This document shows positions 4,396-35,232 of a stretch of 45,019 bases of DNA, in pieces. Position numbers and translations under genes: made by a program. The notes beneath the pieces are model-generated. The model searched no databases, had not been told where the DNA came from, and saw nothing but the letters and a program-made list of their open reading frames with translations. This stretch comes from Candidatus Brocadia sp. (GTDB taxonomy: Bacteria > Planctomycetota > Brocadiia > Brocadiales > Brocadiaceae), in contig JABWAQ010000047.1 in the NCBI GenBank assembly GCA_013360945.1, positions 1 through 45,019 on the forward strand, given 5' to 3'. The number at the start of each line of letters is the position of its first letter. Position 1 is the stretch's first letter.

Positions 4396-5721
4396 CTACA
4401 CGACTTTCCCTTCCTTGATGTATTCACGCATAATGGCAGATTCCAGCCTCTTTAATCCGACAACTCCGGATTTATCCGCCAATGCTTCCAGGGAACAATA
4501 ATGAGTCACGTTCATAATGCTTGCACCGGCAAGTTCGAAACGGACCGATACATGCCGCCAATCGATCTCTTCTCCAATTTTAATCTGAGGCGGAAAGGCC
4601 CTGCGCCATATTTCATAGCGCTCTTCGGGACGCGGCATGGGGAAATGGATGATGTTCTGAAACCGCCTGACAAAGGCATCATCTACATTGCCGCGCTGGT
4701 TGGTGGCTAATATCACCAGCCCGTTATAACCCTCGACACGCTGCAGCAGATAGGCGACTTCCTGGTTGGCATATTTATCGTGGGCGTCCCGGATGTCTGT
4801 TCTCTTGCCGAAGAGGACGTCGGCCTCATCAAAAAACAGTATCCAGTTCTTGTTTTCTGCTTTATCGAACAGTCTCGACAGGTTCTTCTCTGTCTCGCCG
4901 ATATACTTTGACACTACCCGTGAGAGATCAATGCGAAAGACGTCTTTACCTGTGTATTTGCCCAATAAAGTGGCGGTCAGTGTCTTACCCGTACCGGGCG
5001 GCCCGTAGAACAATGCACGGTAGCCAGGCTTTATCTTTTTCTGCATGCCCCATTCGTGCAAAAGAGTGTCGTTGTGAGTAATCCAGTTTTCAATTTCACG
5101 GATCTGAAGCAGGGTATTGGGATGCAGCACAAGGTCGTCCCATGCCATCCCGGTTTCAATGTATTCTGCCGGGAATTCTATGCCAAAGCGCGGCCTGCTG
5201 ACTGTACCGGTAGTGAGCTGTTCCACAATTTCGGGGTTAAGGATGAGGCGGCCACTCATGATCGGCTCCCCTTCGCGCACCGGCTCAAGCCAGAGGATAT
5301 GCTTTTTGGCAAACCAGTGTTCGCTGCTTAAGATACGCTGCACCTCGATACGTCTTTCGAGATCATCTCCCGCAATAATGAACTGAGCGGTTTCCCCAGT
5401 CGGGAGGATGCCACGGTGGTTCGTGGCTTTGACGCCGCCGAATTCTGGAAAATCGCCGCCTTCGGGAAAGTGTTCAGCGATAAGTTTACCGAGAAAATCA
5501 GATTTGAGGTGCGGTGTCAGGGCCAGCATAAATACCACGAACTCCTCAAAAGAGGGTTGATATGTTGCAATAAATTTTGCCAGCCCTGAATCTTCAGGGT
5601 AAAATTCAAGAGGATCGCCTTCAAACTCCTTGGCCCGTCCGAGACGGACGTCCAGGCGATTCTCTATAACTTTTTTCAGCCAATCGATAACCAGTTGAAG
5701 GTTGGTGGAGTTCTGTTTCAT
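4396..5721 (-). CDS. eCIS AAA+ ATPase (Afp15/Pvc15 family)
   Basis: The 441-aa protein has a helical N-terminal region (1-200) and a C-terminal AAA+ domain: Walker A GPPGTGKT at 240-247, Walker B ILFFDEAD at 294-301, sensor 1 ILATN near 337-341, and an Arg-finger region (FVRRFQN) near 350-356. This is the ATPase found at the end of nearly all Afp/PVC-type clusters, where it is needed for particle assembly or effector loading in the producing cell. It is the last gene of the operon, separated from the preceding two-TM gene by a 90-bp inverted repeat. It overlaps no other gene. Start: ATG at 5721; the ribosome binding site is weak (AGAAAG). Confidence 0.92.
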   Translation of the reverse strand: MKQNSTNLQLVIDWLKKVIENRLDVRLGRAKEFEGDPLEFYPEDSGLAKFIATYQPSFEEFVVFMLALTPHLKSDFLGKLIAEHFPEGGDFPEFGGVKATNHRGILPTGETAQFIIAGDDLERRIEVQRILSSEHWFAKKHILWLEPVREGEPIMSGRLILNPEIVEQLTTGTVSRPRFGIEFPAEYIETGMAWDDLVLHPNTLLQIREIENWITHNDTLLHEWGMQKKIKPGYRALFYGPPGTGKTLTATLLGKYTGKDVFRIDLSRVVSKYIGETEKNLSRLFDKAENKNWILFFDEADVLFGKRTDIRDAHDKYANQEVAYLLQRVEGYNGLVILATNQRGNVDDAFVRRFQNIIHFPMPRPEERYEIWRRAFPPQIKIGEEIDWRHVSVRFELAGASIMNVTHYCSLEALADKSGVVGLKRLESAIMREYIKEGKVV

Positions 5722-6538: not shown

Positions 6539-9500
6539 CTATTTAACACTTTTAATTAAAAGATGAAGTGTCTTATTTGGTTTTTTCTGCCGGGCTTCAT
6601 GTACTGTCATATCTTTGTTTTTAAACTTGACTTTCATACTCTTTACTGTTGCTCCACTGCTTCGATTCTCACTTCTTTCCAGCGGCCACAAATTGCTAAT
6701 TATATCTGGTCCACCAAGCTGGCGCTCCACTATGTGGTCTCCGTCCATTCGTTCTGTTCCAGCTCTGAATCCATATGGCCTGAACATATTATTGATCTTG
6801 CTGCCTCCGCCAGTTCCGGCCTTATCAGCATACACAAGCACCTTGCCAGGGGTTAAATCTGCAAAAGCAGGGTCTAACCCTACCTGCCCGCCAAATATTG
6901 TCTGATTAGGTCCTCTCGCCGCCCTGTATACGGTGACCTTCCCATTCCAGGATATAAAACCCGGCTCAGATTTCAACTTAAGTTCATGTTTTGTAAGCTC
7001 TTTTTTCGCGTCACTTTCTGTTGCTTTTGTAGCTGCATTCTTGAGCCACTTTTGGTCAAGATAATACTGTGTTAAAGGCCCAGTATAAATATTGGGGTAT
7101 GCGGCTGCGCGGCGCTTTGGATAGTCAATAGGCAGAGGACCGTTTTTACTACCTTCGTCTTCTGACCTGTCAAGGGATTCAGCAAGTACCTTACCCAGTT
7201 CGTTGAATCTTTCCGTTAACTTCTTATCCGCAACGGTTATTGCTGCCTCATCAGGTGGGGATTTTTTCTGGGCTGCGGCCAACGTCTGCTTGATCGCATT
7301 GATCTCATTTGTAATTGAGTCAACCTTACTTTTGACTTCATTTGATGGTGTAAAGTCCAGTATAAATTCTGCAGGAGTTATTGGTTTGCTTCGCACCATG
7401 AGCTTGGGGTCATCTTGGCCACCTTCGAATTGGAGTGTATGCGACTCACCGCCGCCAATGATAGGCACCTTCTTCCTCCACCATTGGAGGACTTTACTTA
7501 TTCCAGCTTTGGCTGCTCCAACAAGCTTTTTCAACATATTCCCCAACCATGCCACAATCTTGTCCAGCCCCTTGTCAATAGGCTGACGTATCTTTTTGAC
7601 TATTCCTACAATCTTATCCGGTATACCTCCAAGCCCTGCAAATTTTGCCAAAAACGTGATAACAATGGTGAGTGTTCTGGCCATGGTCTGCTCCACCTTC
7701 TTAGCAGCATTGGCAACCTGACCTGCCGCAATGGCTGAAACAGAATCGATAAAGGAAGCAACAACGGCAGCAATCTGCTGGATTTTCTCAATAAAGAAGG
7801 TGATGGTTTTGTAAATTGCAATGATGGCCTGGACGACCGCGCCCGCAGGGTTCAGCATGCTTACCAGTTTCATTACGGCGGCCTTGACAACTTCAATCGA
7901 GATCATCTGGGTGATCTGGGCGATCAGTTGATCCTTTAATTCACTCAGTTCCGCCTTAATCTGCTCCCAGGCTGCTGCCGGTCCATCCTTTACCAAGGTA
8001 ACCAGGATGCCTGCGGTTTTTTCCAATCCGACAAGGACCGGTTCGGGAATGATTTTCACCAATTTGCTGCGGATGTTCTGCCAGGTCAAACCGAGCACCG
8101 ACAGCACCAGTTTGACAATTTCAATCAAATCGAATGACTTGGGAATATATACCCCGGCATCGGCCAACGGTCCAACGAGCCATTTGATCAAAGCTGCCTT
8201 CAGGTGTTCAATAATATTGCCTGCAAACATTTCAAAACCCATCTTCCCGGCCCGCACCAGGTTGCCAACAAATCCTATGGGGTTCTTGAGGATGGTTATG
8301 AACGACGCCTGAGCTTTCCTGATGTAAGGCATGATACTGGGAGCCACGACGCTAAAGAGTATCTCAAGCAGGCTGATGACCTGATTGAGTCCCCAACTGA
8401 TAAATTCACCGGCGATGTTGGCAAAGGCGCTCACAATTTTACCGAATGCTCCCGCAACGGTAATGATATCCTGGAATGTCAGAGACCTGAGCGTAGCCAC
8501 AATCTTACCGGGAATTGCACGCACAAAACCCATCAGGCCTGCCAGCGCACCCTGGAACCAGGCCCAGGCGCGGGCGACGGCATTGCCCTTTTTGATGTTT
8601 TCCCAGACCTCTTCCTGTCCGATGAGTTTCATAAAGCCCCCGATGAGGGTATCGGCATTGCGCGGAACCGGTTCGCCGGTTATCGGATCTTCGCCAAGAA
8701 TGGCTTTCAGAAGGTCGTAACCCCGGGTCCCTTGTGCCAGTGCAGCCAGTGGTTTAAGGATGGCGTCCTTGACCATCTTGAGTATTTCGCTGACTACTGA
8801 TCCGCCAAAGGCGATCAGCCTGGCTATGGGCGCGGTAAAGATGCTCCTGGCGCGCTCCCACACGCCGCCAAGATCAAAGATATCGCTCCAGCTAAGTGAA
8901 TCCACGAAACGTTTCAGGCTATTGACGATTTCACTGCCAATATCACCAAATGCTGCCAGCCTTTGTTCAACCCAATCTGCAGCTTTATTGATAACTCCGT
9001 GGTTGTCCAGCGCCTGTGTAATGAAGGCGCCACCGGGAATCAATTCGATCAATGCGCGCAACAGGTTGGCGGCATTGCGGGCAGTGGAGCGCATGTTGAT
9101 CGGATTGAAGCCCAATAGGAGTGTCAGCATCCGGAAGCCCGGTATCACATTGGCTTTATCAGCAAAATAATCCAGGACATCCCGAATCCCAAGTCGTTGC
9201 ACCATCGGCGGAGTCACTGTGGTGGTCACTTGTGGGCTGCGCTGTACGGCATGCCCCTGCTGAATCGTGTGGGTCAGCTCATGAGCCAGCAGCTGCTTGC
9301 CCTCACTGCTACCGGGCTGGTACTGGTCGCGCGAGAAAAAGACGTGGTTCTGGTAGGTAAACGCCCGGGCGCTCAGTTGGTTGCTCAAACCGGCGGATTC
9401 GGCATCGGTATGGATGCGTACATTGCTGAAGTCGGCATTAAATCGAGGTTCCATAAAGCCCCGCACATCACTGGAAAGAGGCTGGCCACCGGTGGTTTTG

Positions 9501-9946
9501 CCCTGAATCGAAGACTGGGTATCACTTGTTAACGAAGGAGCGCCACTGCCCTCCCGCTGCAATTTTTCTTCGCTGGCAGCAGCCTTCTGAATTTTTTCTT
9601 CTTCTTTTTTTGGGGCCTTTTCCCCGGGAATAGCCGCTCTTTGTATTTTTTCTTCTTTTTCCTTTTCTTTTTTCTGTAACTTTTCGTCAGTTTGTCCCAG
9701 GGTTTTTTTCTCAGTTGGTGCAGGGGACGGCATCCGCATCACCTTGCCGGCCATCGTATCCGCTTCCTGCTCGAGCTTATCCCCTGGCTTATTGACCGTC
9801 ATTTTCATCTGGACAACCGGGGCGACGGTTGACCTCTGCGGCATGAAAAAGCCGCCTTCTCCCGTCTTTGGGAAAAAAGGACGGTTCGCAGCATGCGTTG
9901 CCGTCGACGAGGTCGTTGTAGATGATTTTTCCGCACTGGTCTTCAT
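6539..9946 (-). CDS. eCIS effector: DUF4157 metalloprotease-like N-terminus, HNH nuclease C-terminus
   Basis: The 1135-aa protein has four parts. Residues 1-80 carry the NKPGDKLEQEADTMAGKVM motif typical of eCIS cargo proteins. Residues 83-135 are a Lys/Glu-rich repeat (EEKIQRAA, EEKIQKAA, EEKLQRE). Residues about 155-237 are DUF4157, with the zinc-protease motif HELTH at 222-226. Residues about 250-820 are a chain of amphipathic or hydrophobic helices, like pore or delivery regions. The last 90 residues contain GDHIVERQLGG (His1071), followed by NLWPL and an Asn-containing ERSENRSSG, an HNH-type nuclease pattern of polymorphic toxins. DUF4157 proteins are known eCIS-associated cargo. The gene lies between tape measure and ATPase. 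I infer a DNA- or RNA-cleaving payload; the immunity gene is not obvious. Confidence 0.85.
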   Translation of the reverse strand: MKTSAEKSSTTTSSTATHAANRPFFPKTGEGGFFMPQRSTVAPVVQMKMTVNKPGDKLEQEADTMAGKVMRMPSPAPTEKKTLGQTDEKLQKKEKEKEEKIQRAAIPGEKAPKKEEEKIQKAAASEEKLQREGSGAPSLTSDTQSSIQGKTTGGQPLSSDVRGFMEPRFNADFSNVRIHTDAESAGLSNQLSARAFTYQNHVFFSRDQYQPGSSEGKQLLAHELTHTIQQGHAVQRSPQVTTTVTPPMVQRLGIRDVLDYFADKANVIPGFRMLTLLLGFNPINMRSTARNAANLLRALIELIPGGAFITQALDNHGVINKAADWVEQRLAAFGDIGSEIVNSLKRFVDSLSWSDIFDLGGVWERARSIFTAPIARLIAFGGSVVSEILKMVKDAILKPLAALAQGTRGYDLLKAILGEDPITGEPVPRNADTLIGGFMKLIGQEEVWENIKKGNAVARAWAWFQGALAGLMGFVRAIPGKIVATLRSLTFQDIITVAGAFGKIVSAFANIAGEFISWGLNQVISLLEILFSVVAPSIMPYIRKAQASFITILKNPIGFVGNLVRAGKMGFEMFAGNIIEHLKAALIKWLVGPLADAGVYIPKSFDLIEIVKLVLSVLGLTWQNIRSKLVKIIPEPVLVGLEKTAGILVTLVKDGPAAAWEQIKAELSELKDQLIAQITQMISIEVVKAAVMKLVSMLNPAGAVVQAIIAIYKTITFFIEKIQQIAAVVASFIDSVSAIAAGQVANAAKKVEQTMARTLTIVITFLAKFAGLGGIPDKIVGIVKKIRQPIDKGLDKIVAWLGNMLKKLVGAAKAGISKVLQWWRKKVPIIGGGESHTLQFEGGQDDPKLMVRSKPITPAEFILDFTPSNEVKSKVDSITNEINAIKQTLAAAQKKSPPDEAAITVADKKLTERFNELGKVLAESLDRSEDEGSKNGPLPIDYPKRRAAAYPNIYTGPLTQYYLDQKWLKNAATKATESDAKKELTKHELKLKSEPGFISWNGKVTVYRAARGPNQTIFGGQVGLDPAFADLTPGKVLVYADKAGTGGGSKINNMFRPYGFRAGTERMDGDHIVERQLGGPDIISNLWPLERSENRSSGATVKSMKVKFKNKDMTVHEARQKKPNKTLHLLIKSVK

Positions 9947-25927: not shown

Positions 25928-26365
25928 CTAGGGAATCGTAAAATAACGATAGGAAAGCTCCATCGTCTCTATGACAACGGAATTTTCATTGGCATTCAAG
26001 TCACTGACAACCCACTTCCTGGGAATGGCATGAGCCACATTCCAGGTACGCAAAGGCTCGCTCTTTTCGTTCATCAGAATAATGCTGACTTCTGTGGGCT
26101 TAAACTCCCGGTCACGAAAGGCATTGAGGAACCACCTGATTACTTCAGAATCCGTCAGCATGCCGCGCTTCAGCACCAGATCCGCATATTTTGTGCGCAC
26201 GGGCAGCTTGTGGACAAAGCGATTTTCGCCGCCTTCCTTATACTCTTCCATGTCGTATTCTACGGACAACCCTGAAACCGTCTGAAAACGCACGTCATTC
26301 TCATTCTGGCTGATGCCGAATTTGACCTGATAGTAAAATCCCCACGGCGGATAATAGTCGCTCAT
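25928..26365 (-). CDS. Tube protein 2 (gp19-like, Afp5/Pvc5 type)
   Basis: The 145-aa protein has the gp19/tail-tube fold pattern: FYYQVKFGI, FQTVSGLSVEYDMEEY, HKLPVRTKYADLVLKRGML and VRT...WNVAHAIPRKWVVSDL...MELSYRYF. It differs from the tube 1 protein by its shorter N-terminus and the PVRTKY segment. In eCIS the second tube protein usually forms the layer that joins the main tube with the LysM hub protein. Start is ATG at 26365; 11 bases separate it from the tube 1 stop. It is one of two tube genes here. Confidence 0.88.
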   Translation of the reverse strand: MSDYYPPWGFYYQVKFGISQNENDVRFQTVSGLSVEYDMEEYKEGGENRFVHKLPVRTKYADLVLKRGMLTDSEVIRWFLNAFRDREFKPTEVSIILMNEKSEPLRTWNVAHAIPRKWVVSDLNANENSVVIETMELSYRYFTIP

Positions 26366-26376
26366 GGCTCATCTCA

Positions 26377-26814
26377 TTAAACTTTCATCAATTTCAAACC
26401 CTCATGGGCAATCTCAATACTTTCTATCGCAGCCTCATTCGCGTCAGATTTCAAATCAGCGGCTGTAACCTTTACCGGAAAGCATCTAACGGCCGACCAG
26501 GCTGCCACAGGTTCGTGCTTTTCGTTCAACAATCGGATGACCACATCACGCCGGTTTTTAGCCCTCTCGTTGGCCACATCGTCCATCCATGTGTTGAAAT
26601 CGAAATCTTTCTCAAATTTGCCGCGCTTCATGGTGATGTTGTTATTCTTGATCAGTCCTGGCATGGCGATTTTATTGAAGTCCTTGCTGTCACTGTGCCG
26701 GTATTCGATCTTCTCCCTCTCCATAACAAGTCCTGTTACTTCCGTAAAACTGATTTTTGCCCCACCCCAATCCACCTGAAAGTGAAATCTGGGTAATGGA
26801 TATTCCTGCGCCAT
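26377..26814 (-). CDS. Main tube protein (gp19-like, Afp1/Pvc1 type)
   Basis: The 145-aa protein has the tail-tube fold: FHFQVDWGGAKISFTEVTGL, KIAMPGLIKNNNITMKRG, FDFNTWMDDVANERAKNRRD and WSAVRCFPVKVTAADLKSDANEAAIESIEIAHEGL. Hexameric rings of such proteins stack into the inner tube that carries the payload. GGAG lies upstream of the ATG at 26814 at a normal distance. It directly follows the sheath gene, as expected, because sheath and tube are the most abundant components. It is the most likely main tube subunit by its place after the sheath. Confidence 0.9.
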   Translation of the reverse strand: MAQEYPLPRFHFQVDWGGAKISFTEVTGLVMEREKIEYRHSDSKDFNKIAMPGLIKNNNITMKRGKFEKDFDFNTWMDDVANERAKNRRDVVIRLLNEKHEPVAAWSAVRCFPVKVTAADLKSDANEAAIESIEIAHEGLKLMKV

Positions 26815-26873: not shown

Positions 26874-28880
26874 TTATGACTCTGCCATTTTATGGGAAAA
26901 CCTGAGGATAATGAATTCAGCCGGGCGAACGACAGCCATGCCGATTTCGACAATCATACGGCCTTCGAGGATGTCGAGGGGGGTCATGGTCTTGCCAAGC
27001 CCAACAGCAACATAGAATGCGTGTTCCGGCTTAATCCCCTGCATGGCGCCCTGCCGCCAGAGGAAGGTTAGGAAATTTTCGATCATTCCCTGCACGCGCA
27101 CCCAGGTATTGGCATCGTTCGGTTCAAAGACAAACTGCTCTGTGGCCTTTTTGCTCGACTCCTCAACGAAGTTGAAAAACCTGCGCACATTGATATAGCG
27201 CCATTCATTGTCGTTTCCTGCAAGGGTGCGGGCGCCCCAGACGAGGCTTCCTTTGCCAGTAAAAGCACGGATGATGTTGATGGATTTCCCCGCGTTGACA
27301 TCCACGTTAAACTCGGCTTGCTGCTCATGGGTTATTTTCACCGCAGGACCAATTACAGAATTCAAGCTGACATTAGCAGGTGCTTTCCAAACACCCCTAT
27401 CGCGATCAACAGACGCATAAACGCCTGCAATAGCGCCACTGGGCGGAAGAAGGTTGAGTGCTTCGGCAGCTTTCGTCACTAGCTCTTTATATGTGCCAAA
27501 CGCTTCCAACAGGGCATCGTTGAGTGTTTTTTCATAGTTGTTTTGAGTTGATTCAAGAAAATTGAAAAAGGCAATTGCCTCTTTTACACCTGACAGTGCC
27601 ACGCCAATTGCTATATCACCCCGCTGTTTGGCTGTTGCAGCAGAAGCATATGCACCTGTGACAGCAGGAGGGACAGGAGGTGTCAGTAAGGTAGTACCAT
27701 CGGTAAAACCGAGGAAGGCCGCCACAGTATCTAAATCTGCTCCGGTTGTTAAAAGATTAACTACATTGGTAGGGGGTGTTAGGCCACTTAGAAATTTATG
27801 ATGGTCTGCTACGTTTCTTAGCGACACTTTTAAAGGATTTTGTTGACCGTTAAGATATTTATCAATGTCGTCTCTCAGTTTAAAGCGACTGTTTGCAACA
27901 ACGGGTGATGCATCATACCGTGATTTTATTGCCTTAATTATATTAATCATATAGGTTGCAACCGGTTTTAGCGCTGTTTCTATTTGAGTAGCTGTTGCAG
28001 TAGAAGTCGTCGCATTATAGGTGTCGAGCAATACTTTTAAAGCATCTTCCAATGTTTTGCCGGATGTACCGGTAAGAGTGTTTTTAGCGGTGACAGCCGC
28101 ACCTACAAAACTCTCTACATTTATTAACTCAGCAATTAGACTCTGAATGTCTGGATCTGTCGTCAGGCTGTTCAATTGGATAGGTGCCCCGCTGCCATCC
28201 CGCTTTAGGATCACATTGCGTCGCATGAGCGTCCGAGGCAGATTTGCCCGAAGCCATGGGCCGTAAGCGGCGCCATATTTCAGGAAGTTGATACCAACCT
28301 TTTCCCTGAATTCTGCCACAGAACTATTGAATGCTGTATTATCAATCGTTTTTTTCAAATCACATATGGTTACCCGATCCATCAGTTTGTTGCATTGTGC
28401 CAGTGCTTTTTTCTGAAATTCATATGGTCCATTTGTATCCGAGACTGCGTCCGGCGCAATGATAATCGTTGGTTCATCTTCTTGCTCCAGCAGGGTGATT
28501 GCTGCTTCGAGCATCGCGGAAGACACGTTGTTCGGGTATGGACCGACTGACAAAATGTAACACTTACCGCCACCATTGGCATAAAACATGCGAAGACTGT
28601 CATATAAATATAACTTGGCAGCAGCGTCTGCTCGAATAAACTGATTATTCGTGTCCAAAAAGAGGTTTACATCCTGCGAAGGAGCGCCACCGAAGAGAAA
28701 CTCGAACTCCGCTATGGACTCGATTCGAGTCGGTTTATTAACAAGCGACTCACCATTACGTATTGCCTCCTCCGTATACCCGATAAACGCGGGTATAGCC
28801 GTCTCCACCGGCGCAATGGAGGGTGGGAACTTGGGGATCTCCTCGACGTATACCCCCGGGGTTTTATACAATGATGGCAT
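26874..28880 (-). CDS. Contractile sheath protein (Afp2-4/Pvc2-4 family)
   Basis: The 668-aa protein begins YKTPGVYVEEIPKFPPSIAPVETAIPAFIGYT and ends with WRYINVRRFFNFVEESSKKATEQFVFEPND, WGARTL and the MIVEIGMAVVRPAEFIILRF terminus, all hallmarks of tail sheath proteins. The conserved parts are the N-terminal about 200 and C-terminal about 200 residues. Residues about 235-475 form a long, Thr/Ala-rich insertion (TSTATATQIETALK, TTLLTPPVPPAVTG) that is likely to decorate the particle surface. Afp and PVC have several sheath genes of about 350-450 aa; here one long gene does the job. GGAGG precedes the ATG at 28880. Confidence 0.92.
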   Translation of the reverse strand: MPSLYKTPGVYVEEIPKFPPSIAPVETAIPAFIGYTEEAIRNGESLVNKPTRIESIAEFEFLFGGAPSQDVNLFLDTNNQFIRADAAAKLYLYDSLRMFYANGGGKCYILSVGPYPNNVSSAMLEAAITLLEQEDEPTIIIAPDAVSDTNGPYEFQKKALAQCNKLMDRVTICDLKKTIDNTAFNSSVAEFREKVGINFLKYGAAYGPWLRANLPRTLMRRNVILKRDGSGAPIQLNSLTTDPDIQSLIAELINVESFVGAAVTAKNTLTGTSGKTLEDALKVLLDTYNATTSTATATQIETALKPVATYMINIIKAIKSRYDASPVVANSRFKLRDDIDKYLNGQQNPLKVSLRNVADHHKFLSGLTPPTNVVNLLTTGADLDTVAAFLGFTDGTTLLTPPVPPAVTGAYASAATAKQRGDIAIGVALSGVKEAIAFFNFLESTQNNYEKTLNDALLEAFGTYKELVTKAAEALNLLPPSGAIAGVYASVDRDRGVWKAPANVSLNSVIGPAVKITHEQQAEFNVDVNAGKSINIIRAFTGKGSLVWGARTLAGNDNEWRYINVRRFFNFVEESSKKATEQFVFEPNDANTWVRVQGMIENFLTFLWRQGAMQGIKPEHAFYVAVGLGKTMTPLDILEGRMIVEIGMAVVRPAEFIILRFSHKMAES

Positions 28881-29929: not shown

Positions 29930-30553
29930 TTAAGGCGCCACCGTTTTCCTGTGATGGAAATTGCTGACAACTTCAGTAATAAGCCCGCTTTCGCTTTGGA
30001 CTGCTCTGAACTTCATTTCAAGCATTCTTAAGGTGTACAGAACAAAAGGATACTGTTTGCCCCCCAAAGTACCCCACAAATGATTGACTTCCTCTAAGGT
30101 TGGAGAATATAAATCGAAAATAAGCTTAAAAGTTTCTAATTGGTCAAGAGGGTTAATTGGGCTCGAATTCGTTATCGAACCAGGGGAAACATTGTCTTGC
30201 GTAAACACGTTTTTGGACTGGAAAAAACGTATTACCCTCGATAATATCAATAATGCGTTGGTGTAATCCGTATGAGTTGCAGCCATAAGAATCAAAAAAT
30301 TGAGAAAAACAGGGGGATTTTCATAAACTGCTCTGAGCGTTGCGTCGTTTCGTATATAGTTTGGCAGATTCTTCAGGGTTTTCTCGTCTTTAATATTTAC
30401 TACCGATAAGTAAAGCCTGTCTCTTTCGCCAGCGTTACCTGAAAATCCCTCTGCCAAATTTCTCAATCCAACCTGAGGAGAGTTAGAACCGTAGCTTTCG
30501 GTGAGGTGTGTATTCAACTCATTCATTACAATGGTTAAGGCATGTGAAAGCAT
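29930..30553 (-). CDS. Tube terminator/cap protein (Pvc16/Afp16 family, DUF4255)
   Basis: The 207-aa protein starts MLSHALTIVMNELNTHLTESYGS and has PQVGLRNLAEGFSGN and PPVFLNFLILMAATHTDYTNAL, matching the DUF4255 (Pvc16_N) family. In Afp and PVC this protein caps tube and sheath and stops growth. It is the first gene of the eCIS operon. GAGGG lies 7 bases before its ATG. A 22-codon frame (30603-30535) overlaps its start and may be a leader peptide. Transcription must first pass the GEMM riboswitch and terminator at 30783-30960, so this gene's expression is predicted to depend on a cyclic dinucleotide. Confidence 0.88.
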   Translation of the reverse strand: MLSHALTIVMNELNTHLTESYGSNSPQVGLRNLAEGFSGNAGERDRLYLSVVNIKDEKTLKNLPNYIRNDATLRAVYENPPVFLNFLILMAATHTDYTNALLILSRVIRFFQSKNVFTQDNVSPGSITNSSPINPLDQLETFKLIFDLYSPTLEEVNHLWGTLGGKQYPFVLYTLRMLEMKFRAVQSESGLITEVVSNFHHRKTVAP

Positions 30554-30782
30554 TTTGGCCCTCTTTTACTGGAGTTTTGTTTGTGAGAGCTAGTTCTTTT
30601 CATTATCGTCTTTCACCCTTTATGCTAATGACCTCCTGAAGCAATCAAAAACTAAGTAACCATACGAATAAACATCTTGTCTCTGGCTATTAGTGAATAT
30701 AATACGCTTCGTAGTTGAGTTAAATTGGCTTACTATATATCCCAAATAGATGTATAGCGCATGATTCTTAATACATAAAAAC

Positions 30783-30846
30783 AAAAAAGCCCTACTGCAA
30801 AGATCTTTGAATATTCGTTTATTCAAAACATCTTCGGCAGTAAGGC
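30783..30846 (-). terminator. Riboswitch-linked intrinsic terminator before eCIS
   Basis: The minus strand has GCCTTACTGCCGAAGAT (plus 30830-30846) pairing with ATCTTTGCAGTAGGGC (plus 30789-30804), followed by six U. The 5' arm of this hairpin is the 3' strand of the aptamer, so ligand-bound aptamer and terminator are mutually exclusive. Predicted: ligand binding prevents termination (ON switch). Confidence 0.75.
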
Positions 30847-30960
30847 TGTCTTTATATTTTCCTGAAATCCCCCTTAGTCCCCCTTTTATAAAGGGGGATT
30901 TGAGAGGATTAAAGACCCTGTTACTTTGCGCCCCCTGATCACTCAGGGTTTGCCTTTATC
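30829..30960 (-). ncRNA. GEMM-I (cyclic di-GMP-I) riboswitch aptamer upstream of the eCIS operon
   Basis: On the minus strand the sequence reads GATAAAGGCAAACC, a 6-bp stem CCCTGA/TCAGGG with GTGA (a GNRA tetraloop), then GGGCGCAAAG, GTCTTTA/TAAAGAC pairing, and ACAGCC-TTACT-GCCGAAG. These are the conserved blocks of the GEMM-I class (GNRA tetraloop, GCAAAG with the intercalating A, first C of GCCGA that pairs with ligand). The base before CAAACC is G, which in this class goes with cyclic di-GMP. The long stem region holds an extra CCCCCTT...AAGGGGG hairpin, a repeat unit. A terminator follows directly. The eCIS operon starts about 275 bases downstream. Confidence 0.8.
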
Positions 30961-30961
30961 G

Positions 30962-31215
30962 TGATGAATGATAGTTAATTTTACAGTATTGGTACGAAAA
31001 TACCCTTTACTTATCCGACACGGTGCTCCGTGTCCCTTCAACCCTTTGTTTCTCGGTTTTTACACTTGTTACAAAAACGGCATAGTCTGTCAAGCGTTTC
31101 CCCATGTACATGAAGACATGCGTCAAGATCAAATATTCTTTCTCCATTCGACATTCATTATTCCATATTCAATATTCGATATTGGAGCCCTCGTATTCAA
31201 AACAAGCCCTGAGCA
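30962..31215. other. Upstream region of the eCIS leader
   Basis: This segment lies between the riboswitch and the DUF3467 gene and should hold the eCIS promoter. On the minus strand TATCAT and TAAAAT occur 12-25 bases before the aptamer, but no good -35 box is spaced correctly. I found no sigma-54 consensus (TGGCAC-N5-TTGC) here. No gene is seen. Confidence 0.4.
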
Positions 31216-31930: not shown

Positions 31931-32127
31931 TCGATAAGGAATGTTTGATGATAGGAATACCGTGCGGCAGTGATTGTGTTGTAAAAAAGTTTGCAATCTG
32001 TTGACTTTCCACTGCATTTCTGCTACTTTTACCATGTAATTTTTGCGATGAAAATGGATATATCGCAATGGTTTATCAAACATCCCGGGAAATCTATAGA
32101 ATGGCGTAGGAAAGAGAGGAGATGAAT

Positions 32128-32379
32128 ATGACAATACCGCGTAGTTTGGTTTCAACCATCGAAAGAGAAGAGAAGATATGTGATTTAGCGCAAGAGGAGT
32201 TAAAAAAAAAGTGTAGAATTTTTGAAAATAAATACCATTTTTCTTCAGATGAATTTTATAAACTTTTTCAAGAAGGAAAGATGGGGGATGAAGAAGACTT
32301 TTTTGAGTGGAAGGCGATGATTGAAGGAATTAAAGAATGGGCACGCACAAAGGAAAACTTAAAAGGGTTAATTAAGTGA
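32128..32379 (+). CDS. Small antitoxin-like protein of a TumA/TumE-like pair
   Basis: The 83-aa acidic and lysine-rich helical protein (QEELKKKCRIFENKYHF, WKAMIEGIKEWARTKENLKGL) has no recognised domain. It is followed by, and overlaps by 4 bases (the GTGA at 32376), the TumE-like gene. That arrangement, its small size and its helical character fit the antitoxin of a type II pair. I chose the ATG at 32128: GAGAGGAG lies 7 bases before it, whereas the ATG at 32122 is too close. The assignment depends mainly on the partner. Confidence 0.55.
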   Translation: MTIPRSLVSTIEREEKICDLAQEELKKKCRIFENKYHFSSDEFYKLFQEGKMGDEEDFFEWKAMIEGIKEWARTKENLKGLIK

Positions 32380-32762
32380 TCGATGAACATCTCGATGAAA
32401 TAGAAAAGATAATAAAAGATGATCGTCTAATAATTTTTTCCGATTTTCAAAAAATTTGTACAAGCCAGAACACAGCATATATCAAGGTAAAAATCAGGTT
32501 TATCGACAATTCTTTCTTGAGCATTTTCCATCACGTTCATGATGAAAATGGTTTATTCAGGTTTGATTATAGATATCATTACATGGACTCTGAAAATGCA
32601 ATGATATTTCGTTATGATAACGCTCCTCATCATCCGGAGGTTCAATCGTTTCCCCATCATAAACATACCACGATAGAAATAAAAGAATCAGAAATGCCAA
32701 ATATCAGAGACATTCTTTCGGAAATTCATCATCATATCATTAAAGGACTATTATCAAAATAG
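32376..32762 (+). CDS. TumE/DUF6516-like toxin candidate
   Basis: The 128-aa protein has the motif YRYHYMD followed by FRYDNAPHHPEVQSFPHHKH, rich in histidine, which I know from the DUF6516/TumE family of toxin-antitoxin proteins. Other features are a short acidic N-terminal helix and a C-terminal helix. The start is a GTG (32376) overlapping the previous gene stop. The activity of TumE proteins in this fold is not certain; some act as growth inhibitors. The family recognition rests on the His-rich motif and on the partner gene, so it is moderate. Confidence 0.6.
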   Translation: MIDEHLDEIEKIIKDDRLIIFSDFQKICTSQNTAYIKVKIRFIDNSFLSIFHHVHDENGLFRFDYRYHYMDSENAMIFRYDNAPHHPEVQSFPHHKHTTIEIKESEMPNIRDILSEIHHHIIKGLLSK

Positions 32763-33164: not shown

Positions 33165-34523
33165 CTATGAATGTCCGGAGGCTTCCTTCTTCGCCGGACT
33201 GATGTGATACCTTTCAAGCTTCCGGTAGAGGGTCATCCTGGACCAATTGAGCTTTCTGGCTGCCTCTGCCTTATTCCATTTGGTGGTCAAGAGCATGGCA
33301 AGCAGTCGATCCCCCTCATCCTGAGAAGATATTCCCGCGTCGACAACACGCTTACGGAACGATTCCGGCAGGTCCTGAAACGATATCCATTGGGAATGAG
33401 TATTGATAATAACGGCCTCTAAAAGGTTCTTCAACTCCCGAATGTTGCCTGGCCAATCATAGGTATGGAAGAACTCCAGGGTGTCACCGGAAAACCCTTT
33501 GATCTCACGTCCAAAACGTCTGTTTAATTCACGGATGTAATGATCGAGCAAGATGGGAATATCCTCTTTTCGATTCCTCAATGGAGGCAGATGGACGCTG
33601 GCCACGTTGAGCCGGTAATAGAGGTCTTTTCTGAACCTGCCTTCCGACACCATCTCCTCCAGGTTTTTATTGGTAGCGGCAACGAACCGGATGTTTAAAG
33701 GGATGCTTCCCTTTCCCCCGATCCGTTGTATCTCCTTGCCTTCAATGGCCCTCAGGATCTTTGCCTGGTGATAAGTGCTCATGTCCCCAATCTCATCGAG
33801 GAAGACGGTGCCACCCTCAGCCTGTTTCAGCTTGCCCTCCTTCAGGGTATCCGCCCCGGTAAATGCCCCTCGTTCATAACCAAAGAGTTCACTTTCCATG
33901 AGGGTGTCAGGTATGGCAGCACAGTTGATACAGACAAAAGGATTCTTCTTCCTTTGGCTGTTCTCGTGGATGAGTTCTGCCGTCAGTTCCTTGCCTGTAC
34001 CGGTTTCCCCTGTAATGAGAACGTTACTGTCCATCTGCGCGGCCTTCCCGATGTATGCCTTGATCTCTTTCATCGGTAAACAATCACCGATGAACTTCTC
34101 TGCATTGAAAAGGCGCTGACGTGGAGTTTCATGTGTTCCGGAAGATGTCTGAAAAGAAGAACTGGAGAGGCATCTGCGAATACTTATAGCAAGCTCTTCA
34201 AACGAAACGGGCTGCTTAAAATAGTCGCTAATCCCAAGTTTTAGGGCTGCGACTGCAAGGGCTTCAGTACTATCATGGGTGATCAGGATGATGGGAATGG
34301 CGCCATTCCACTGCCGTATCTCTTGTGCTATCTGCAAACTGTCCCACCCACCGTCTTGTGTCCCTATGATTATAAGATGAATGACGCCGCATTGAATGAT
34401 TCCAAGTGCTTCTGTTTTATTTGACGTTTCAATACTATTATACCCCTGCTGAAGCAAAAACTGTTTTAGCTCTTTTCGTAACGTATCATTCCATTCCACG
34501 ACTAAAATTGTTGGTGTCTTCAT
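33165..34523 (-). CDS. Sigma-54-dependent activator with degenerate receiver domain
   Basis: The 452-aa protein is NtrC-like: receiver-type domain (1-115), AAA+ sigma-54 interaction domain (about 140-375; Walker A GETGTGKE 172-179, GAFTGA 219-224, Walker B VFLDEIGD) and a Fis-type helix-turn-helix (about 410-436, KAEAARKLNWSRMTLYRKL). In the receiver, the phospho-acceptor Asp is Gly (LIIIGTQDGG, residue 54) and the acidic pocket is only partly kept (VVEWND), though T83 and K103 remain. So phosphorylation is unlikely; activity may be set by expression, through the riboswitch upstream, or by another partner. Targets cannot be read from sequence; the eCIS operon is a candidate because the same riboswitch type precedes both. 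Confidence 0.9.
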   Translation of the reverse strand: MKTPTILVVEWNDTLRKELKQFLLQQGYNSIETSNKTEALGIIQCGVIHLIIIGTQDGGWDSLQIAQEIRQWNGAIPIILITHDSTEALAVAALKLGISDYFKQPVSFEELAISIRRCLSSSSFQTSSGTHETPRQRLFNAEKFIGDCLPMKEIKAYIGKAAQMDSNVLITGETGTGKELTAELIHENSQRKKNPFVCINCAAIPDTLMESELFGYERGAFTGADTLKEGKLKQAEGGTVFLDEIGDMSTYHQAKILRAIEGKEIQRIGGKGSIPLNIRFVAATNKNLEEMVSEGRFRKDLYYRLNVASVHLPPLRNRKEDIPILLDHYIRELNRRFGREIKGFSGDTLEFFHTYDWPGNIRELKNLLEAVIINTHSQWISFQDLPESFRKRVVDAGISSQDEGDRLLAMLLTTKWNKAEAARKLNWSRMTLYRKLERYHISPAKKEASGHS

Positions 34524-34766: not shown

Positions 34767-34814
34767 AAAAAAGCCTTACTGCAAAGATTTTTCAAACATC
34801 TTCGGCAGTAAGGC
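34767..34814 (-). terminator. Riboswitch-linked intrinsic terminator before the activator
   Basis: GCCTTACTGCCGAAGAT (plus 34798-34814) pairs with ATCTTTGCAGTAAGGC (plus 34773-34788), followed by six U then UAUUUU. The 5' arm overlaps the aptamer 3' strand as in the first copy. The two terminators are nearly identical, indicating duplication of the whole regulatory unit. Confidence 0.78.
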
Positions 34815-34918
34815 TGTCTTTTTCTACAGCAAGGCTGTTTTCTTTAATCCCACATCCTTGTAAGTTTAAAGACCCTTTCTTTTGCGTCCCCTGATCACTC
34901 AGGGTTTGCTTTTATCGG
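34797..34918 (-). ncRNA. GEMM-I (cyclic di-GMP-I) riboswitch aptamer upstream of the sigma-54 activator
   Basis: Minus strand: CCGATAAAAGCAAACC, CCCTGA-GTGA-TCAGGG with a GNRA loop, GGGACGCAAAAG, GTCTTT/AAAGAC stem, ACAGCC-TTACT-GCCGAAG. All blocks match the first copy at 30829-30960; the core GACGCAAA is closer to consensus than in copy 1 (GGCGCAAA). Base 20 (before CAAACC) is G, pointing to cyclic di-GMP rather than cyclic AMP-GMP. The P3 arm has an extra CAGCCTTGCTG hairpin. The activator gene starts about 275 bases downstream. Confidence 0.8.
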
Positions 34919-35232
34919 AATGTATTCTCTATACCTGATCTTAAAAGGAACAAAATGAAACGCAAATAACCCTTTTGACTTTCTCCATCGAGATAATCAA
35001 ATTATATCACAATTATTCAACCATTCAACCAATGGATTTGTAAGGCCGAATTTCTTAAACATCAAATGAACTATTTGATTTATTAATGAGCAATACTAAT
35101 ACCAAAATGCAGATAAAGGTAAACCTTTAAAAGATGTTTTGCCGTAAGATACTTCTTTGATTGGAATTCTGACATTTAAAAATATAAAAGAATAGAAACA
35201 TACTGCAATAAACTTATGGATCTGAGATAAGG

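What the first reader, a model, noticed from the sequence alone, without database searches (positions are those of the whole stretch)
30783..30960. Cyclic dinucleotide (GEMM-I) riboswitch directly controlling a contractile injection system operon
The minus strand shows the conserved GEMM-I blocks (GGCAAACC, GNRA-capped P1b stem, GCAAAG, GTCTTTA/TAAAGAC pairing, ACAGCC...GCCGAAG) followed by an intrinsic terminator whose 5' arm is the aptamer 3' strand. It lies between the likely promoter region and the first eCIS gene (30553). A switch of this layout would stop transcription unless ligand is bound, so intracellular cyclic di-GMP would license weapon production. The G before CAAACC argues for cyclic di-GMP over cyclic AMP-GMP. 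Riboswitch control of an eCIS is, as far as I know, not described.
Basis: partly seen in the sequence, partly recalled or inferred. Interest (0 to 1): 0.95.

Follow-up and report, generated by a model that had tools for sequence, protein, structure and literature searches.

The report
Second-messenger RNA switch before injection weapon
In what is very likely an anammox (ammonium-oxidising) bacterium, the genes for a phage-tail-like injection machine sit directly behind an RNA switch of the cyclic di-GMP class, which likely stops transcription unless that signal molecule is bound, so that the cell would build the machine only when the signal is high.

Summary
A GEMM-I (cyclic di-GMP class I) aptamer lies at 30833-30964 on the minus strand: Rfam RF03167 59.6 bits (cut-off 59), RF01051 57.0 bits (cut-off 35), and 79 bits with a model built without it. 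The ligand-contacting bases are the canonical G20, A47 and C92. A hairpin plus T-run captures C92, the layout of the Geobacter pilM ON switch. The next gene, 279 nt on, opens an extracellular contractile injection system (eCIS) operon.

The link is conserved. In this genus, 5 of 5 eCIS-bearing genomes (of 11 held) have such an aptamer directly before the operon, in three eCIS lineages. Between two species the leader stays 86% identical up to the terminator's end, and then a different eCIS begins. The genome holds at least 37 GEMM-I switches. Relatives encode hydrazine synthase, so this is very likely an anammox bacterium.

The link is not universal: none was found at 79 named eCIS loci elsewhere or at five in sister genera. 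My searches found no natural riboswitch before an eCIS in print. Ligand binding and switching are untested, and the window's own promoter is unidentified.

The parts
30833..30964 (-). GEMM-I (c-di-GMP-I) aptamer before the eCIS operon; G20=30954, A47=30927, C92=30837
30933..30948 (-). P2 hairpin CCCTGA-GTGA-TCAGGG (GNRA loop)
   Evidence: covariation of the family
30865..30901 (-). 37-nt inverted-repeat insert in the variable P3 loop
30788..30847 (-). terminator hairpin whose 5' arm is the aptamer 3' strand and pairs C92; T-run follows at 30787-30777
29930..30553 (-). first eCIS gene, Pvc16_N domain
   Evidence: PF14065, E 2.1e-33
26874..28880 (-). eCIS sheath
   Evidence: PF17482; PF04984 just under its cut-off
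25928..26814 (-). two tube proteins (gp19 family)
   Evidence: PF06841
24917..25624 (-). CIS_tube protein
   Evidence: PF19266
22411..24920 (-). spike/hub and gp25 baseplate proteins
   Evidence: PF04717, PF04965
18751..22407 (-). Baseplate_J protein
   Evidence: PF04865
9968..11479 (-). CIS tape-measure protein
   Evidence: PF19268, E 2e-128
6539..9946 (-). eCIS_core protein, 1135 aa, candidate cargo
   Evidence: PF13699; weak PT-TG below cut-off
4396..5721 (-). AAA ATPase of the eCIS cluster
   Evidence: PF00004
31216..31482 (-). DUF3467 gene upstream of the switch; a relative stands before the eCIS switch in G006, G008, G010 and before the second G007 switch
34801..34920 (-). second GEMM-I aptamer, A20 (34910), before the response regulator
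34772..34815 (-). terminator of the second switch, T-run follows
33165..34523 (-). sigma-54 (NtrC-type) response regulator
   Evidence: PF00158, PF00072, PF02954

Best explanation
The leader at 30772-30964 (-) is a cyclic di-GMP class I riboswitch by sequence and structure, with an overlapping predicted terminator, and it likely works as an ON switch that lets transcription run into the eCIS operon only when cyclic di-GMP is bound. Without ligand the aptamer's 3' strand (AGCCUUACUGC, including C92) is predicted to pair with the downstream GCAGUAGGGCU arm and form a terminator just before the T-run. With ligand, C92 would pair with the guanine of cyclic di-GMP, the aptamer would hold its 3' strand and polymerase would read on. 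Shown here by sequence and comparison: aptamer identity, canonical pocket bases, overlap of terminator and aptamer, position before the operon, conservation in the genus. Inferred: the ligand, the direction of switching, and that most eCIS transcription passes through the leader.
For: Aptamer; covarying helices. Pocket G20/A47/C92. Hairpin plus T's capturing C92 in 37 of 40 leaders examined, against 94 of 800 with shuffled downstream sequence. For this leader the free fold with terminator is -76.2 kcal/mol; aptamer and downstream folded apart sum to -57.8. Mechanistic precedent: in the pilM ON switch the terminator captures the ligand-pairing C75 and excludes binding (PMC9262584, passages read). 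Comparison: eCIS in 5 of 11 genomes of the genus (PF14065, PF17482), and a GEMM-I over cut-off directly before the operon in 5 of 5 (for the window and G005, for G005, G006, G008, G010), with 80-279 nt between aptamer and first open frame. Three eCIS lineages: window and G005; G006 and G008; G010. Sheaths are 95% identical within the second, 39% (322 aa) between G006 and G010, 29-38% to the window's, and gene orders differ. G006 and G010 leaders are 86% identical over 749 nt, ending 42 nt past the aptamer, at the T-run, where the different eCIS begin. GGDEF: 13 of 13 in this genome have Asp at the Hypr position.
Against: No binding or expression data. No clear promoter before the window's aptamer (best: TTGACA-17-AACAAG about 100 nt upstream, 9 of 12), and none reached 9 of 12 before the G005 one. 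A weak promoter-like site lies between terminator and gene, inside a stretch of about 170 nt that G005 lacks. Other genera of the same family have eCIS without a switch found (5 loci, one cut by a contig end), as do 79 of 79 named loci (one model), so an eCIS does not need one. The score over the RF03167 cut-off is thin (0.6 bits); the RF01051 margin is large.
Confidence: 0.85

Rival explanations
1. The switch is real but reads another dinucleotide (3',3'-cyclic AMP-GMP) or both.
For: The second switch of the window has A20, as has the orthologous one in G004; position 20 is a selectivity factor and not a hard filter (PMC9262584, passage).
Against: The eCIS switch has G20 in 5 of 5 genomes. 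No Hypr-type GGDEF in this genome (13 of 13 Asp), and Hypr enzymes have Ser there (PMC6456294, passage). CD-NTase (DncV-type) cGAMP synthases were not searched for.
Confidence: 0.08
2. The leader is bypassed: an internal promoter, or strong constitutive read-through, sets eCIS expression and the switch is a relic.
For: Weak 9-of-12 promoter-like site at 30723-30696 in a stretch absent from G005; a 37-nt repeat sits in the P3 loop; no clear upstream promoter.
Against: Promoter-like sites are not clearly above chance (16 found, 11.3 +/- 3.4 expected). Pocket bases and terminator are kept in 5 of 5 eCIS leaders. G006, G008 and G010 share a TTGAAA-18-GATAAA site directly before the aptamer. The P3 loop is variable throughout the family.
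Confidence: 0.1
3. Chance: a genome with dozens of GEMM-I copies will have one near many things.
For: At least 37 over cut-off here; 20-56 matches in each of the four other eCIS-bearing genomes of the genus; one sits before a Y2 transposase and one before an integrase fragment.
Against: 5 of 5 on the right strand within 300 nt of the first open frame, in three eCIS lineages. By hand, a same-strand aptamer within 400 nt has a probability of roughly 0.001-0.003 per genome from the densities; the genomes are related, so the five are not independent.
Confidence: 0.03

Closest known systems
c-di-GMP-I / GEMM-I riboswitches (Rfam RF01051, RF03167)
   Same: Secondary structure, pocket bases G20/A47/C92, cis-regulatory position.
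   Different: The regulated operon is an eCIS; the P3 loop carries a 37-nt repeat insert.
pilM cGAMP ON switch of Geobacter metallireducens (PMC9262584, passages read)
   Same: The terminator uses the aptamer's 3' strand and captures the ligand-pairing C, so aptamer and terminator exclude each other.
   Different: pilM is a cGAMP switch for pilus genes; the eCIS switch has G20 and no Hypr GGDEF was found in its genome.
Vibrio cholerae: c-di-GMP and the type VI secretion system through TfoY (PMC6618264, listing with the start of the abstract only; the riboswitch before tfoY is recalled)
   Same: Cyclic di-GMP influences a contractile weapon.
   Different: Indirect, through a regulator (recalled), and low c-di-GMP induces there; here the switch heads the structural operon and high c-di-GMP would induce.
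Extracellular contractile injection systems (Afp/PVC-like; superfamily survey PMC6899500 seen only as a reference entry)
   Same: Pvc16, sheath, tubes, spike, gp25, Baseplate_J, tape measure, AAA, eCIS_core.
   Different: No natural riboswitch control was found in my searches.

Membership tests
c-di-GMP-I (GEMM-I) riboswitch | covariance-model score over curated cut-off | tested here: met
   RF03167 59.6 bits vs 59; RF01051 57.0 vs 35
c-di-GMP-I (GEMM-I) riboswitch | ligand-contacting bases G20, A47, C92 | tested here: met
   30954 G, 30927 A, 30837 C (Vc2 numbering recalled, G20 also named in PMC9262584)
c-di-GMP-I (GEMM-I) riboswitch | expression platform linked to the aptamer | tested here: met
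   overlapping predicted terminator with T-run
c-di-GMP-I (GEMM-I) riboswitch | binds c-di-GMP and changes expression | not testable with these tools
   needs in-line probing or transcription assays
c-di-GMP-I-GGC variant (RF03167) | G at the A47 position | tested here: not met
   A at 30927; consensus G in the alignment. Reading GGC as positions 20/47/92 is my inference
cGAMP (GEMM-Ib) riboswitch, for the eCIS switch | A20 | tested here: not met
   G20 in 5 of 5 eCIS leaders
cGAMP (GEMM-Ib) riboswitch, for the regulator's switch at 34801 | A20 | tested here: met
   A at 34910; A in 2 of 6 regulator leaders
cGAMP (GEMM-Ib) riboswitch, for the regulator's switch at 34801 | a cGAMP-making Hypr GGDEF in the genome | tested here: not met
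   13 of 13 GGDEF have Asp; CD-NTases not searched
eCIS operon | sheath, tube, hub/spike, gp25, baseplate, tape measure, AAA ATPase | tested here: met
anammox bacteria | hydrazine synthase alpha (PF18582) | tested here: inconclusive
   0 in this assembly, but 11 of 16 genomes searched, 6 of 11 in the genus

The most novel reading that the evidence does not exclude
In this anammox genus a fixed promoter-riboswitch-terminator module is a c-di-GMP-gated weapon slot: eCIS operons of different lineages are exchanged beneath it (and in one species another operon), with the break at the terminator's T-run, while the neighbouring sigma-54 regulator has its own switch of the same family, in two species re-tuned to A20. 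Cells would thus build injection machines only in the high-c-di-GMP, granule-forming state, whichever machine they happen to own.
Probability: 0.45. Interest if true: 0.78.

Novelty: new variant of a known kind. Interest (0 to 1): 0.63.

Why it matters
What turns eCIS on in nature is, as far as I recall, mostly unknown. A directly wired second-messenger switch would give a concrete input, link weapon production to the sessile state (in anammox granular sludge, more c-di-GMP goes with more biofilm matrix: PMC11224092, passage), and make the question testable in a tube with a short RNA, for bacteria without pure cultures (same paper). It would also show regulation evolving by keeping the switch and changing the weapon behind it.

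Tried and rejected
Rfam variant reading: the GGC label looked like a variant pocket; the A47 base is canonical, so this was dropped.

cGAMP for the eCIS switch: rejected for G20 and the lack of a Hypr GGDEF in this genome. For G004 and G007, one search listed 36 GGDEF places and fetched 30; 27 of 30 could be parsed and had Asp, 3 were not parsed.

Anammox guess: HZS_alpha in the own genome gave nothing; in 16 genomes, 11 rang. Genus 'Ca. Brocadia' is an inference from genome sizes, not a result.

Sigma-54 promoter for the eCIS: none at my threshold in 300 nt before 5 of 5 eCIS leaders. TGGTATT-N4-TTGC-type sites precede the regulator's switch in the window (184 nt before), G006 and G008 (about 50 nt before), but the threshold gives 265 hits on the window's two strands, so this is only suggestive.

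A palindrome GACACGG-AGCA-CCGTGTC before the window's switch as a regulator site: no copy before the eCIS leaders of G005, G006, G008 or G010.

Regulator as obligate partner: G005 has eCIS without a close regulator (best about 38% identity); G003, G004 and G007 have the regulator without eCIS. Regulator with its own switch: 6 of 7 orthologues; not found in G003, where about 860 nt upstream are held.

Shared leader of window and G005: the 72% alignment over 219 nt is mostly aptamer and terminator, which align among all these leaders; only about 30 nt lie past the T-run, so common descent of that leader is likely, not proven.

Generality in other GEMM-rich orders: not tested (one search failed). 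The 79 named loci, some cut by contig ends, were searched with R1 only, 7 of 79 also with Rfam; R1 is trained on this family and could miss others. Loci from other families of the order (G034 two, G044, G047, G048) were searched only within 1.5 kb: no match.

Full report
What is there. The Rfam scan of the window at gathering thresholds returned two matches, both GEMM-I riboswitches on the minus strand: 30832-30963 (RF03167, 59.6 bits, cut-off 59) and 34801-34920 (RF01051, 51.1 bits, cut-off 35). RF01051 gives the first place 57.0 bits. A model (R1) built from 21 other aptamers, without either of these two, gives 79.0 and 74.0 bits. The helices named by Rfam covary in those 21: 98.9% of 378 cells paired, 10 of 18 pairs with double-sided changes, covariation 0.529 against 0.188 +/- 0.019 in shuffles and at most 0.142 in slid versions.

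Pocket. In Vc2 numbering (recalled; G20 is also named in a passage of PMC9262584), the eCIS switch has G20 at 30954, A47 at 30927 and C92 at 30837. The RF03167 consensus has G at the A47 column (alignment), so the better score of the 'GGC' model does not mean a variant pocket. The second switch differs at one contact: A20 at 34910. A20 is the base of cAMP-GMP switches (recalled: Kellenberger 2015, Nelson 2015); PMC9262584 calls this position a selectivity factor, not a hard filter (passage). Among 40 leaders examined (30 of this genome's 38 matches and 10 from relatives), 38 have G20 and 2 have A20, both before the response regulator (this genome and G004). Five more of this genome's matches, read, have G20.

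Platform. The stem 30847-30788 followed by a T-run uses the aptamer's 3' strand as its 5' arm; C92 is paired and C93 bulged. The free fold with terminator is -76.2 kcal/mol for the leader; aptamer and remainder folded apart sum to -57.8, without tertiary or ligand energy. In 37 of 40 leaders C92 is captured in a hairpin followed by T's, against 94 of 800 with shuffled downstream sequence; the three that fail are two in this genome (L002, L021) and the second G007 switch. In the pilM switch of Geobacter metallireducens the same arrangement makes an ON switch: terminator pairing sequesters the ligand-pairing C75 (PMC9262584, passages). I infer ON logic here.

Operon. The aptamer's end and the first eCIS start codon (30553) are 279 nt apart. 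Gene order: Pvc16_N, a 350-aa protein without family, sheath, two tubes, CIS_tube, hub/spike, gp25, Baseplate_J, proteins of 165, 946 and 1315 aa, tape measure, eCIS_core protein, a 178-aa protein, AAA ATPase, all on the minus strand.

Organism. The window is contig 47 of a 3.85-Mb, 196-contig assembly. Hydrazine synthase alpha (PF18582) rings in 11 of 16 genomes searched, 6 of 11 in the genus, not in this assembly. The five genus members without it are split into 110 to 510 contigs, and seven other genomes of the family carry two copies, so loss in assembly is likely. I conclude anammox (Brocadiales); the genus name Ca. Brocadia is a guess.

Conservation. Pvc16_N rings in 9 of 33 genomes of the family, 5 of 11 in the genus; the sheath domain rings in the same five of the genus. 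All five have a GEMM-I over its cut-off directly before the operon, with 80 to 279 nt between aptamer and first open frame (in G006 and G008 that first frame, 80 and 89 aa, has no Pfam family). The sheaths fall into three lineages: window and G005; G006 and G008 (95% identical to each other); G010 (39% to G006 over 322 aa); G006, G008 and G010 are 30, 29 and 38% identical to the window's. Gene orders differ too.

A slot. G006 and G010 carry different eCIS, yet their leaders align at 86% over 749 nt, from 587 nt upstream (600 were given) to 42 nt past the aptamer, the end of the T-run, and no further; G006 and G008, with the same eCIS type, align at 91% on through the 400 nt given past the aptamer. 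The three share TTGAAA-18-GATAAA about 20 nt before the aptamer (9 of 12). The window's leader has the same kind of upstream neighbour, a DUF3467 gene, as those of G006, G008 and G010 and the second switch of G007; behind that one lies not an eCIS but a subtilase, proteins without Pfam family and a phage-lysozyme protein. G005 has no such neighbour; its leader aligns with the window's at 72% over 219 nt, mostly aptamer and terminator. The simplest reading is that weapons change behind a kept switch, and sometimes move with it.

Second tier. The regulator at 33165-34523 has, counting itself, 7 full-length orthologues at 60% identity or more (one search also lists a broken partial copy in G004); 6 of 7 have a GEMM-I upstream. 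It lies beside the eCIS in three genomes (window, G006, G010), on another contig in G008, is absent in G005, and is present without eCIS in G003, G004 and G007. A role in eCIS control is possible, not shown.

Ligand supply. The genome has 13 GGDEF matches; 13 of 13 have Asp where Hypr enzymes have Ser (PMC6456294, passages). One GGDEF protein (its receiver and EAL parts recognised by eye) starts 238 nt past the aptamer of its own GEMM-I, a likely feedback. GEMM-I number: 38 matches, 37 over cut-off, with 150 of 361 candidates scored, so a lower bound; 20 to 56 in ten other genus members, likewise. Geobacter sulfurreducens has 17 (PMC6456294, passage). I looked with Pfam at mechanically chosen open frames behind 28 other switches of this genome: 12 of 28 gave no family; the rest include subtilase, RCC1 repeats, IgGFc-binding, TonB plug, LodA, radical SAM, molybdopterin, sigma-54 activator, TPR, transposase, integrase and antitoxin matches.

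Results against. Five eCIS loci in other genera of the family (G015 two, G016 cut by a contig end, G017, G022) have no GEMM-I in the stretches fetched, although these genomes have 14 to 28 each. None of 79 named eCIS loci has an R1 match at E up to 1; Rfam on 7 of them found only tRNAs. R1 is trained on this family and could miss others. A further weak R1 match (27 bits) lies in G008 away from the operon (L086:4398-4502). The window's own promoter was not identified.

Literature. Searches for contractile injection with riboswitch and c-di-GMP, anammox with contractile injection (52), Brocadia with riboswitch (53), anammox with c-di-GMP and riboswitch (65), eCIS with riboswitch (76) and tailocin with riboswitch and c-di-GMP (77) showed no natural riboswitch before an eCIS. 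Two Streptomyces papers that hold both words use a synthetic theophylline switch (passages). PMC10599522 mentions GEMM-I genes and, in its references, eCIS (passages). PMC11224092 and PMC10066040: passages only. The other papers of these lists were seen as listings only. The library holds open-licence papers only.

Noticed in passing
window 34801-34920 (-): A20 in the switch before the sigma-54 regulator, also in G004 but not in G006, G007, G008 or G010: a possible change of ligand by one base within one leader family.
   Followed up: partly
L102:4272-4378 and 4616 onward (G000:C80): A GEMM-I with predicted terminator before a GGDEF-EAL gene: likely c-di-GMP feedback.
   Followed up: partly
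L205:4863-17160 (G007): The same DUF3467-switch slot leads to a non-eCIS operon: subtilase, proteins without Pfam family, a phage-lysozyme protein.
   Followed up: partly
L085:14169-15487 (G006): A further GEMM-I about 5 kb past the last eCIS-like gene matched, before a radical SAM gene; a like gene stands behind a switch in this genome too (L023).
   Followed up: no
window 30865-30901: A 37-nt inverted repeat inside the P3 loop; other aptamers of this genome carry a different repeat (GGGGCGTATNGCATACGCCC-like) at the same place.
   Followed up: partly
window 32122-32762 (+): TumE-type toxin gene and a small neighbour, opposite strand, between the regulator and the DUF3467 gene.
   Followed up: no
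L007 and L020 (G000): GEMM-I with predicted terminator before a Y2 transposase and before an integrase fragment: the switches may themselves be spread by mobile elements.
   Followed up: no
window 34801-34850: The second switch carries two copies of the aptamer 3' strand motif (ACAGCCTTGCTG and ACAGCCTTACTG) in tandem, which could give alternative pairings.
   Followed up: no
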